From positions 54,287 to 102,411 of the forward strand of contig KQ964530.1 in NCBI GenBank assembly GCA_001566745.1: a stretch of DNA of 48,125 bases, read 5' to 3'. The translations under genes and the position numbers were made by a program. Positions 234-46,714 of the stretch are shown here, in pieces. The notes under the pieces are model-generated. The model saw only the letters and a list, made by a program, of their open reading frames with translations. It was not told the origin of the DNA and made no database searches. The stretch comes from Conidiobolus coronatus NRRL 28638 (lineage: Eukaryota > Entomophthoromycota > Entomophthoromycetes > Entomophthorales > Conidiobolaceae). The number at the start of each line of letters is the position of its first letter. Within the stretch, counting starts at the first letter, position 1.

Positions 234-1172
234 TCAGGGTTGGTGAGTCAAATAATAGATTGCGTTGAGTATTTTTGCCCTGTCTTCTGCTTTACAAAAG
301 TCTAGCGCATTGATGTTGTTGAGTTTATTTTCGGGCGGATAGCGTTCAACAATAAAGTTATTTTTAGGTCTAGATTTGTAAATCTCACAGATATACTCTA
401 TAGATATTTCCGCTTTGTAGAACGTAAAGAAGGTTCCAATAACTTGATACTCTCCCCAACCATTACGCATAGTTGCACTGAAGTCGTGTTTATCTTCTAT
501 TACTAGCATTATGTGATTATCTTTTATTACAGTGAAGTCTGGTATAGACATGATATCTTTTTCCTTAATACTAGTTGTGCATTCATATTTGATAAATAAT
601 CTGTATGGGTGATCATTGAGTCCTATTTTGTTGAAAAGGGAATTAACAAAGCCATCGACCCTTACCTCTTTATTAGTGTCTTTCTTTTCTATACCTATTA
701 CTTCTCTTAATCTTTCGACGACACTCCTGGCCTTTATATTTAACGTAGTTATATCATTGCTTTTTATTTCATCTTCGTCCCAGTTATTTGGAAAAATTTC
801 CTTATATTCACTAGGCAGGTTCTCAACGGACATGTCTGAGTTTTCTAATAAGGGCATCTTCTCAAACTCAACATTAAAATATTCGAGTTCTATTTCACCC
901 CACTTACTAGTTTTGGTCGGTAGCTCATATTCGTCATCAAAGCTGGTTCTTTCCTTGTAGTCCGATGTCTTAGTCTTTACAAAGGGAGATTCATCCAATA
1001 TATCCACCGATTCAATCTCCAATACAAGCAATAACAATCTCCCTATCGAAGACGCAGGTAGTTGAAGAATTACTAAAACATCTCTTATCTGTATCTGCTG
1101 GAATACCTTGCACTCAAAGTTTGATAATATTTCCATTAATTTAATTATATCTTGCTGCTCAGCTTTATTCAT
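234..1172 (-). CDS. PD-(D/E)XK nuclease-like protein, subfamily A
   Basis: A 312-residue uninterrupted frame. I chose the ATG at 1172 (MNKAEQQD) over an upstream TTG. The C-terminal half carries a restriction-endonuclease-fold core: IPDFTV (P211, D212) followed about 14 residues later by VIEDKH (E226, K228), then WGEYQVIG, which fits the helix after the active-site strands. The first 130 residues are charged and unrecognised. The closest relative in the window is the broken gene at 18869-19490, which shares the order VDGxVN, PD/PE, EDKH, EYQVxG. Compared with that paralog this protein lacks about 25 residues after EYQVIG, so one core strand may be missing and activity is uncertain. Fungal proteins of this type are often transposon-linked. 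A nuclease-fold assignment is fairly secure; a biological role is not. Confidence 0.7.
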   Translation of the reverse strand: MNKAEQQDIIKLMEILSNFECKVFQQIQIRDVLVILQLPASSIGRLLLLVLEIESVDILDESPFVKTKTSDYKERTSFDDEYELPTKTSKWGEIELEYFNVEFEKMPLLENSDMSVENLPSEYKEIFPNNWDEDEIKSNDITTLNIKARSVVERLREVIGIEKKDTNKEVRVDGFVNSLFNKIGLNDHPYRLFIKYECTTSIKEKDIMSIPDFTVIKDNHIMLVIEDKHDFSATMRNGWGEYQVIGTFFTFYKAEISIEYICEIYKSRPKNNFIVERYPPENKLNNINALDFCKAEDRAKILNAIYYLTHQP

Positions 1173-1639
1173 GAGCAGATGGCGTTCACCCAAACACGGA
1201 AGATTGGATCGTGGATTTCACATGATATTCTATTACTTAACAGTGCCTTAACTATTGGTACAGGTATATTTGCGCCCGTTTCGCATTATTCAATGTGGGA
1301 ACCTTTTAAAAGTTTAACCAGATAATTCAGATTGTCTACCAACTTTCGTACCACTGCCTTTACAGTCCACTTATGACTTTCTTCTGCCGAGAGTTTAAAA
1401 AAAAAATGCTTAATATCCTTTGGGTTGCAGCGGCCTCGTTTAGCTCCACTTACCCTTGAATAACAACACTTACTTCACTAGGTCACTCTCTCTTCGATTT
1501 GTGCACTGACTCCAGATGAGGAAAGAACACCAAGTACAATCCACTCTTAACTCCATTGCCACACATTTCAACCTGATCACTCGTTTTTGGCTTTGATTCT
1601 GGAATTGTAATCCCGTTGAGTTAAAATTGTTGGAAAGTG

Positions 1640-2060
1640 AATTTAGAATGTTAAACAACTTTAGGGGAAACTGAACAGCCGATCGTGGCTTCTGTGTGAC
1701 CATAGCAATTGTAAAGCTTACCTTCAGGAGCCCAAATATCCAAAAATTGCTGACTTAAGCTTTCACCACCAACTGTTATAAATTCTAGAGGTGAGAGAGC
1801 AATTAGTCACACCTAGTGTTTGAATAACAAACTCCATATTATTAAGTATAAGTCCACGGTCAGTAATACAAGGAGCACCGTCTACAGACCAAGCTAAGAA
1901 CGTGTTTTAGGATGAACTGGTAAAACATGGGAGAACCCACTAACAGCTGATACTAGATTTGAATGGGACACCATAACACCTTTAGGCTTTCCGGTAGTAC
2001 CTAAAGTAAATAAGAGATATGTCAAATCTGATCCTTGTATTTCCAAATCCATATCTATAT
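1640..2060 (-). pseudogene. NRPS-like / acyl-adenylating domain relic
   Basis: Read on the minus strand, several frames together spell an AMP-binding adenylation domain. The A3 phosphate-binding loop TLGTTGKPKGVMVSHSNL is at about 1960-2013, FITVGGESLSQQF at about 1745-1785, and the A5-type motif LYNCYGHTEATIGC at 1681-1722. The pieces lie in at least two frames with stops between them, and the domain's N- and C-terminal parts are missing. The family activates carboxylic or amino acids as acyl-adenylates, in NRPS, NRPS-like reductases or acyl-CoA ligases; this relic cannot be active. P450 relics lie next to it, which is typical of secondary-metabolite loci. Confidence 0.75.
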
Positions 2061-2102
2061 TTACGCTGATAAAAATATTATTTTTCCAGAAAGGATCTAT
2101 GA

Positions 2103-3150
2103 GTGAAAAAAATTAAACAAATTGCTGGGTCAAATAAAATTATACAATTGTGGCAAAACGGGTGGGTAGTTTTCATTCTTGATTATGGTATGCTTACGAA
2201 GTTCTGGAATTCCAGAGCGTATATTCGGGATCCCGATGCCGTACCAAACCACACAGTGCTTATCGATTTTGTGGGGAAAAACAACCTCGGCTTTTCAAAT
2301 GGTGAGATATGGAGCAAACAACATAAAATTATCACCAAGCTACTTAAACAAAAAGGAGAAACTTGTTGACAATCTAATAGGTAAGTACTCACGCAAGATC
2401 AGTGGGAAAGTAGATTTAAATGATCTAGCTACTCGATTTTCGTTTGAAGTTATTAGTAATATTTTGTTAGACAACAGTTGCGAAGAAATGTACGATGATT
2501 TCGTTTCTCTGGCGAACTCAGCTACGATAGTTAAATTACTTGTCCCGACTCCATTTAGCACGCCTGAAATTGGTAGAATTCATGAACGGATTATTTCAAT
2601 GAAATCAACATTCTATACTGAATTATTAGAGCTTTTTGATAATAAACCCAAACTTGCAGCTAAAGCAGTCTCATTTATAATGCTTGCTGGGTTTGAAACT
2701 GCTTCAACAGGAATAATATGTGCAGTACATCGACTTGCATTTGATCAAGATCTCCAAGAAAAGGTGAGAACAGACCAAACACTGATCCCTAAACTTGTTT
2801 CACTATCGTTATTTGCGAATCCGCCACTTATGCAAAATTTCAATATGTTAACTACTTCAAACATCGAAATCGGAGATGGTATTGTCTTACCGAAGAATAC
2901 GCGTGTAAATATATTTATAAACGCAGTACACAACTATCCGGATTTCAGTATGGATAACAATGCAGATTCTTTCTGCACATTCTCAGGAGGTCAAAGACGA
3001 TGTGTTGGTGAAGGATTGGCCCGGATTGAGATACGAGCTTTTATCAAACTTATGTTGAATTTCAGATTCAAAACAGATGATCGACTAGTTCCAAATAGTG
3101 AATCAGCAATTACGGCAAAACCTGAAAGAATATTTATCGGTGTTTTTTAA
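2103..3150 (+). pseudogene. Cytochrome P450 pseudogene
   Basis: The sequence spells a fungal cytochrome P450 in two frames that switch near 2350. The N-terminal part contains RAYIRDPDAV and GKNNLGFSNGEIW, typical of the region before the C helix. The second frame has the I-helix AGFETAS and the haem-binding loop FSGGQRRCVGEGLA, with the cysteine ligand present. The K-helix ExxR is lost (SLSLFANPP stands in its place), and the PERF segment between HNYPDF and the haem loop is deleted. The total of about 345 codons is well below the usual 500. A live P450 would be a membrane-bound haem monooxygenase; this copy looks dead. Confidence 0.85.
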
Positions 3151-45697: not shown

Positions 45698-45786
45698 ATT
45701 AGAAAAGTAAACAATATTATGCTTATTATTATTATACACCAATTATTTTTTTTCAATTAAAGGCTCTAAAAATTCTACCATGTTAT

Positions 45787-46041
45787 TTAGGAAGTAATTA
45801 TTTTTTGAATGAATTTAGCCTTTGTCAACTTAGCATTCATTTCATCGATTATTTGTTCATCATTAGCGCCAAGCATTGTCCTGTAAATAATATCTTCTTG
45901 AACGTCAGTCTCAATATATATTACTAAGATTGGAGGTGTACTGTTTATTATAGAAATATAACTTATACCCCATTTAACCCTTATTTTTAAAATTGAATAA
46001 TTTGGATAAATTTTTATTATTAATTGTTTAAGCCATAACTA
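45787..46041 (-). CDS. Unknown small ORF upstream of the subfamily C gene
   Basis: An approximately 84-codon frame on the same strand as 45155-45697, ending 90 bases before its ATG. It reads YPNYSILKIRVKWGISYISI, PPILVIYIETDVQEDIIYRT and ends in a helical basic tail. There is no ATG at the 5' end. It may be a decayed nuclease-like domain or the beginning of the same former gene. I cannot decide. Confidence 0.3.
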
Positions 46042-46071
46042 ATATACTTAGCTTTTACCGATCAACCTACA

Positions 46072-46714
46072 ATGTCTCACCTCTCAGACAGTGAATTAGG
46101 GATTCATGCTAGTGAGTTTGGTGAACGGGACAGAGATATCTTCAACATAATAATACAGAACAGCCACAGTTTTCTGATGCCCAGCGAAGAAGTCCATGAA
46201 GATCTCCAGAAGTTTATAATGCCCAATTGTGGTCCTACTGAAGTGTATCAATTTAGAAAGGTAACTAGCTTGGATAGAGTGCAGAGTTTATACCGAGGAG
46301 GGAACTCACGAAATAGCATATGTAATAGTAGAGAACAAAAGAGGTACCGTGGTGGGAAATAGTTATATCCAACTAGCAGCATGTATGATTGCCGCTATGC
46401 AGTACAACCGGAATGCGGGAGCAGAGGAGGACATTATCGGTATCTTAGTCCTAAGGAGCAAATTCCACTTTTACCGATGTGTGTACAATGAAGAATATCT
46501 AAAAGCACTAGAACAATCCGAACAAGGGGCAATTCCAATTATTGTCGAACAACTTACTAAGAGTATTCCTAGAAAACGAGCTCGAAAGGGTTCAGAGTCA
46601 AATCATCAACAGATAGTTTTAGATATTATCATTCCTACAGAAAGAGAGATCTTACTCAAGTACTTGACAACCCTTAGAAAGAGATTAGACGAATTGGCTG
46701 ATACTTATGGATAA
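46072..46714 (+). pseudogene. PD-(D/E)XK nuclease-like gene with one frameshift
   Basis: ATG at 46072 (MSHLSDSELGIHASEFGERD) opens a frame that runs to about 46280. The adjacent frame then continues through THEIAYVIVENKRGTVVGNS (E-N-K core) and YIQLAACMIAAMQYNR, with the late strand IGILVLRSKFHFYRCVYNEE and a basic segment (SIPRKRARKGSESNHQ), to the stop at 46712. Joined length is about 213 residues. The core order agrees with the other nuclease-like genes. The metal-binding Asp before the strand is not clear. The KRARK stretch could be a nuclear localisation signal. Confidence 0.6.

What the first reader, a model, noticed from the sequence alone, without database searches (positions are those of the whole stretch)
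234..46714. At least twelve PD-(D/E)XK nuclease-like genes or relics in 48 kb
Thirteen loci on both strands carry the same core order (PD or equivalent, about 13-18 residues, ExK, then a helix with Q/E, then a late strand). They fall into at least four subfamilies: A (234-1172, 18869-19863), B (11176-11757, 32488-33027), C (20567-21041, 45155-45697) and D (25146-25949, 39993-40979, 44723-45022), plus four less easily placed copies. Restriction-endonuclease-fold domains are known to be expanded in fungi through transposons and Crinkler-type proteins, but this density, mixing unrelated subfamilies and intact with broken copies, suggests a hot spot or several mobile carriers. No common neighbour gene explains it.
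Basis: partly seen in the sequence, partly recalled or inferred. Interest (0 to 1): 0.8.

Follow-up and report, generated by a model that had tools for sequence, protein, structure and literature searches.

The report
Nuclease-rich relic compartment in a fungus
This stretch of a fungal genome carries fourteen working or broken copies of three families of DNA-cutting enzymes, all from a small, relic-filled part of the genome, and one family has the same unusual shape as two proteins of the animal mitochondrial ribosome thought to be retired DNA-cutting enzymes.

Summary
They form three families: AD (9), B (2), C (3). Models support the fold for AD and B; C rests on sequence.

In the held assembly (17.5 Mb, 186 contigs; identified here as Conidiobolus coronatus NRRL 28638) 66 matches merge to 48 loci, all on 10 contigs totalling 0.82 Mb. 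The window is average for those contigs. Their non-ORF DNA has coding-like GC (0.33 against 0.24 elsewhere) and the window holds fragments of genes from other contigs: a relic-rich compartment of the same genome.

Recent mobile carriers are not supported: no shared flanks, no near-identical copies, saturated synonymous change, relatives from other genomes nested in the tree.

The parts
234..1217 (-). AD family (A1): open 327-aa frame, catalytic D/E/K kept, about 26 profile positions after the catalytic ExK missing; probably defective
11176..11772 (-). B family (B1), intact 198 aa, D64...E90-x-K92; 8-residue insertion relative to the other six B rows; predicted PD-(D/E)XK fold
17816..18690 (-). 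AD family relic in two frames (17816-18394; weak N-terminal piece 18460-18690, E 0.0013); EDR in place of EDK
18869..19395 (-). AD family relic (A2) in two frames (18925-19395 and 18869-19105)
20586..21041 (+). C family (C1), 151-aa frame with PD...IECK; begins at profile position 23
23993..24208 (+).
   Evidence: E 3.9e-11
25146..25961 (-). AD family (D1), intact 271 aa, PD...EDK...ExQ
27107..27532 (-). AD family fragment (PD...EDK...HQLAGE), C-terminus lost
28375..28936 (-). C family relic in two frames (FERK motif)
32488..33051 (-). B family (B2), intact 187 aa
39993..40988 (-). AD family (D2), intact 331 aa; residues 1-62 of low confidence with a possible C/H zinc knuckle, 63-331 one nuclease domain with the fold shared with mitoribosomal mL37/mL65
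44723..45037 (-). AD family N-terminal fragment (D3), no catalytic part
   Evidence: E 1.6e-6; no partner
45155..45742 (-). C family (C2), intact 195 aa; weak HSDR_N_2 match
46265..46714 (+). AD family fragment (ENK...QLAA), N-terminal half lost
12271..12761 (-). relic of acetyl-CoA carboxylase: three pieces 92-95% identical in DNA to the gene on contig C15, joined with overlaps of 12 and 9 bases
29520..30476 (+). intact Nbp35-type P-loop gene; the only other place matched in the held assembly, on C44, appears to start just before the P-loop and to lack the N-terminal cysteine region, as Cfd1 does

Best explanation
The window is an ordinary sample of a 0.82-Mb, relic-rich compartment of the Conidiobolus coronatus genome that holds every copy I could detect of three old PD-(D/E)XK nuclease families. 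SHOWN (computationally): the families, their confinement to ten contigs of the held assembly, the predicted fold of AD and B, conserved catalytic D/E/K in the long frames, more synonymous than non-synonymous change, no shared flanks in the DNA in hand. INFERRED: the intact proteins are small metal-dependent nucleases acting inside the cell, without an effector header or ATPase partner. They are kept by selection in genomic conflict (cutting foreign or selfish nucleic acid, or acting as selfish toxins themselves) and turn over by birth and death, which leaves broken copies in a compartment that also collects host-gene fragments and retroelement debris. Among the solved structures compared, animal mitoribosomal mL37/mL65 are the closest to the AD model.
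Confidence: 0.55

Rival explanations
1. Mobile carriers: each nuclease is cargo or the engine of a transposable or homing element that inserts here repeatedly.
For: Of 8 reverse-transcriptase matches, 5 lie on compartment contigs C138, C85 and C115 (11 candidates scored). REase domains are linked to transposons in the CR/RHS literature (PMC5289972, passages).
Against: In 175,684 bases of compartment DNA in hand, 17 of 24 similar pairs touch a nuclease locus and stay inside it, except overhangs of 44 and 63 bases at two partial copies. No near-identical copies: among full-length pairs tested the best is 57%, and the best non-self match is 65% over a 59-residue piece. No similarity around copies within the window. 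Limits: flanks in hand are about 1.5 kb, and copies this old would have lost recognisable flanks anyway.
Confidence: 0.12
2. Secreted or translocated effectors of the Crinkler (CR) type used against insect or other hosts, kept in a fast-evolving compartment.
For: REase domains are common in CR effectors (PMC5289972, PMC6131194, passages). C. coronatus is an insect pathogen (PMC12387763, abstract start, passages). Effector genes often sit in repeat-rich compartments (recalled).
Against: No header, NTPase or kinase match in 42 alignment members, 34 from this genome (that Pfam has a Crinkler header model is recalled). D1, B1, B2 and C2 start within about 12 residues of their profile matches. The AD profile itself begins well before the catalytic core, but that part is conserved in the family and is matched by the mitoribosomal fold. 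Relatives of AD occur in Clydaea, Boothiomyces, Globomyces and Lobulomyces, saprotrophic chytrids as far as I recall.
Confidence: 0.2
3. Contamination: the ten contigs come from another organism in the assembly.
For: Higher GC (0.33-0.38 in 16 compartment loci against 0.25-0.31 in 6 readable control stretches); another Conidiobolus species has 36.9% GC (PMC12387763 table). D relatives with names are mostly chytrid.
Against: Equal coding GC3. Fragments of at least five other contigs inside the window at 76-95% identity. A repeat shared with C2, C8, C15 and C94. NCBI annotates a protein of C174 as C. coronatus NRRL 28638, which by itself does not exclude contamination.
Confidence: 0.1
4. Endogenous large-virus region carrying many nuclease genes.
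For: A large block of distinct base composition with nuclease families; one DNA_pol_B_2 match among 51 ORFs.
Against: Most of the other families shown (25 of 35 are shown) are household domains such as DEAD, UCH, kinase and RSE1; no confirmed relatives of D, B or C2 in viral contigs; low density of intact frames.
Confidence: 0.03

Closest known systems
Animal mitoribosomal proteins mL37 and mL65 (that PDB chains 5 and s are these is recalled)
   Different: 7-8% identity, no sequence match at E<=10. AD keeps D/E/K, and nothing ties it to ribosomes.
Type IIG/I restriction nuclease domains (DrdV, BpuSI, HsdR of EcoR124I)
   Same: Best other fold matches: DrdV for AD and B, BpuSI for B, HsdR for both. 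C resembles HSDR_N_2 (5 of 9 members at E<=0.1, best 2.2e-4, below cut-off).
   Different: No methylase, helicase or specificity domain; free-standing proteins of about 150-340 aa in a fungus.
Crinkler-RHS (CR) REase effectors
   Same: REase-fold families expanded in eukaryotes and linked to transposons (PMC5289972, passages).
   Different: No header domain and no P-loop NTPase or kinase found.
Chytrid AD relatives (Clydaea HK099_004818, Boothiomyces HDV06_001697 and HDV06_001123, Globomyces HDV02_002487, Lobulomyces HDU92_005796)
   Same: 33-61% identity to D2 over 19-78% of it; same motif set in the complete Boothiomyces ones, EDK read as ADK in the Clydaea model.
   Different: Two of these gene models (Clydaea, Globomyces) include a Fic domain, while the held Conidiobolus assembly has no Fic match.

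Membership tests
PD-(D/E)XK nuclease superfamily | restriction-endonuclease core fold | tested here: met
   AD and B by AlphaFold2 and structure comparison; B less firmly. C not modelled; sequence only.
PD-(D/E)XK nuclease superfamily | catalytic D ... (D/E)xK | tested here: met
   AD own long rows D 17/18, E 18/18, K 18/18. B: D and ExK in 7 of 7. C: ExK in 8 of 9, QxK in L056.
PD-(D/E)XK nuclease superfamily | metal-dependent nuclease activity | not testable with these tools
   needs purified protein
Crinkler/RHS (CR) effectors | N-terminal header domain (Ubl/LFLAK or other) | tested here: not met
   no such Pfam match in 42 members; D1, B1, B2 and C2 start within about 12 residues of their profile matches
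Crinkler/RHS (CR) effectors | coupled P-loop NTPase or kinase | tested here: not met
   no such Pfam match in 42 members; frame lengths
mL37/mL65 family | shared extended fold beyond the nuclease core | tested here: met
   best row spans model residues 71-327 with 222 aligned; rows other than mitoribosomal chains align 108-158 residues, and a few of them also begin at 58-71
mL37/mL65 family | sequence homology | tested here: not met
   hmmsearch of alignment A1 against PDB sequences, 0 matches at E<=10
mL37/mL65 family | part of the mitochondrial ribosome | not testable with these tools
   no localisation data
mobile genetic element | shared ends or flanks among copies | tested here: not met
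   for flanks of about 1.5 kb; old copies could have lost them
accessory (B-type) chromosome | physical separateness and presence/absence between strains | not testable with these tools
   contigs only; second strain not held

The most novel reading that the evidence does not exclude
The AD family is a surviving, catalytically intact eukaryotic branch of the nuclease lineage from which animals recruited mL37 and mL65, and in Conidiobolus it has radiated inside an accessory compartment. A bolder extension, not counted in the probability: these nucleases take part in the compartment's turnover, making breaks that are mended at short repeats and capture gene fragments, as the ACC relic may hint.
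Probability: 0.2. Interest if true: 0.78.

Novelty: new variant of a known kind. Interest (0 to 1): 0.52.

Why it matters
A review states that mL37 and mL65 are probably repurposed endonucleases (passages). The AD model matches these two better than any other solved structure listed, which gives a concrete, testable candidate relative with its catalytic residues kept. The confinement of old, selected nuclease families to a relic-rich 0.82-Mb set of contigs also gives a clear case for asking whether compartments of early-diverging fungi are shaped by the nucleases they carry. Searches of the held library: mL37 + mL65 + nuclease, 0 papers; MRPL37 + MRPS30 + homolog + restriction endonuclease, 0; mL37 + mL65 + fold, 5, of which I looked at passages of two; Conidiobolus with at least four of five nuclease-expansion terms, 0. 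I did not find this link in print, within that library only.

Tried and rejected
Rejected or empty: recent mobile carriers; viral origin (comparison of the D2 model with viral protein models gave 7 matches at E<=0.001, phage proteins among them several exonucleases, with TM 0.28 or less by query length); relatives of D in bacterial or archaeal genomes (none confirmed); a Fic partner in the held assembly (0 matches); PF12705 in the held assembly (0 matches). PADLOC and PHROGs gave only weak matches for ten proteins, best 0.0038 to a CRISPR-associated PD_DExK model for D2. Rfam and tRNA scans of the window found 0; two short tandem repeats were found, not at nuclease loci. PDB sequence searches with the three alignments gave 0 matches. 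B has no relative beyond this genome in one search (63 candidates). The profile search of that collection scored only the 7998 candidates sharing most words. Family profiles used 25 AD (7 from other genomes), 7 B and 9 C sequences; shorter pieces were left out as seeds. For one search, 51 of 57 non-nuclease frames of 130 aa or more were given; six window frames were left out, five of them because they were scanned or explained otherwise (P450, GH81, Nbp35, SpoU, ACC relic) and one because it lies antisense to a longer frame.
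Full report
WHAT IS THERE. All-against-all comparison of ORFs from the window and fetched loci and three profiles show 14 nuclease-type loci in the 48-kb window: nine of family AD, two of B, three of C. None of 981 reversed ORFs scored E<=1. Intact by frame and catalytic residues: 25146-25961, 39993-40988, 11176-11772, 32488-33051, 20586-21041, 45155-45742 (six; 20586 begins at profile position 23). Open but internally shortened: 234-1217. 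Broken or partial: 17816-18690, 18869-19395, 23993-24208, 27107-27532, 28375-28936, 44723-45037, 46265-46714 (seven).

WHERE IN THE GENOME. Five single-protein searches (D2, B1, A1, C2 and L011) gave 66 matches, all on contigs C23, C85, C98, C115, C118, C131, C138, C167, C174 and C180. These sum to 815,782 bases, 4.66% of the held 17.5 Mb, and the matches merge to 48 loci. With uniform placement the chance is about 10^-64; if only 43% of the other contigs were readable, as in my 57.8-kb sample, about 10^-48. Copies are related and may arise side by side, so these numbers overstate independence, but the pattern is plain. The profiles add loci in DNA already fetched: 56 in all, 33 AD, 14 C, 9 B; that DNA was fetched around matches, so this figure is not a genome-wide count. 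Leaving out the four queries that lie in the window, the window has 3 loci (1 per 16 kb) and the rest of the ten contigs 41 (1 per 18.7 kb).

WHOSE GENOME. P0012 is contained in the C174 frame L044:1384-2142 and is named by NCBI as Conidiobolus coronatus NRRL 28638. The contig lengths reported for P0012 and P0011 (30618, 102411) equal those of C174 and C98, and the published scaffold N50 of that assembly is 102,410 (PMC12387763, passages). The published assembly is 39.9 Mb at 27.5% GC, so less than half is held.

WHAT KIND OF COMPARTMENT. GC is 0.33-0.38 in 16 compartment loci against 0.25-0.31 in six readable control stretches; ten of sixteen control stretches were wholly withheld. One other-contig locus, ACC on C15, is 0.42. 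The difference is not in codon composition: GC3 is 0.285 for 14 nuclease frames, 0.285 for 8 frames on other contigs, and 0.318 for three host genes of the window. It is in the DNA between frames: 0.328-0.332 against 0.238. The simplest reading (inference) is that the space between frames is decayed coding DNA. Direct support: an ACC relic in three pieces, 92-95% identical to C15, joined with 12- and 9-base overlaps; fragments 76-89% identical to C108, C101, C76 and C79 and 81% to another place on C15; retroelement matches, 5 of 8 on these contigs. Yet the window also holds intact GH81, Nbp35 and SpoU-type genes, and no second Nbp35 was found in the held assembly, so the compartment may not be wholly dispensable.

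HOW OLD AND HOW KEPT. Chosen pairs of copies have pS 0.69-0.84 and pN 0.23-0.47 in 11 of 11 comparisons. In the tree of 25 AD rows, seven rows from other genomes need at least three changes on well-supported branches; D1 and D2 sit among chytrid and environmental rows, and L003 pairs with P0009. Of 24 similar DNA pairs in the compartment DNA in hand, 17 touch nuclease loci and end at them, give or take 63 bases. These facts fit old families under selection with steady loss, not recent transposition; flanks of old copies would be unrecognisable in any case.

FUNCTION. Small proteins with kept catalytic residues, many divergent copies, many broken ones and a conflict-prone setting suggest defence against foreign or selfish nucleic acid, or selfish toxins. 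This is inference. Effector use is possible but lacks the CR header and NTPase. The Fic domain in two chytrid gene models may come from merged neighbours and has no counterpart here.

RELATION TO mL37/mL65. PMC8998825 (passages) describes them as repurposed endonucleases in animals. I found no sequence match. The claim made here is a shared extended fold; common descent is a hypothesis at about one in five.

CAVEATS. Withheld sequence, incomplete assembly, query-limited counts, no experiment.

Noticed in passing
12271-12761 (-): ACC relic with two internal deletions, both in frame and both at 9-12-base overlaps with the parent on C15, as if made by template switching or microhomology repair.
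   Followed up: partly
4348-4761 (-): Frame that looks by eye like a LINE endonuclease (SDHRLV; no Pfam match at 0.01); a piece at 4494-4686 is 73% identical to C115, and 4210-4302 is 90% identical to C185, which also carries RVT_1 matches.
   Followed up: partly
15799-16501 (-): dUTPase-like frame (E 2.9e-4, just under the cut-off) next to a frame that looks by eye like a retropepsin (no Pfam match); possible retroelement relic.
   Followed up: no
19643-19901: Piece 80% identical in DNA to C131:9168-9427, directly beside the AD relic 18869-19395; cysteine-rich in one frame.
   Followed up: no
7017-7171 and 38181-38281: Dispersed repeat about 77% identical within the window and 77-82% to C186 and C118.
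   Followed up: no
31740-31988 (+): Non-coding piece right after the SpoU-type gene, 71-78% identical to places on C2, C8, C15 and C94.
   Followed up: no
2170-3150 (+): Cytochrome P450 frame in which only the C-terminal part of the domain matches; probably a broken gene.
   Followed up: no
46961-47332 (+): Short frame with a weak MGS-like domain match (2.2e-4, below cut-off), which looks like a carbamoyl-phosphate synthase remnant.
   Followed up: no
36327-36975: Withheld stretch (reads N).
   Followed up: no
P0016: An AD relative (27% identity to D2 over 80%) is annotated in the lycophyte Selaginella moellendorffii; transfer or contamination not examined.
   Followed up: no
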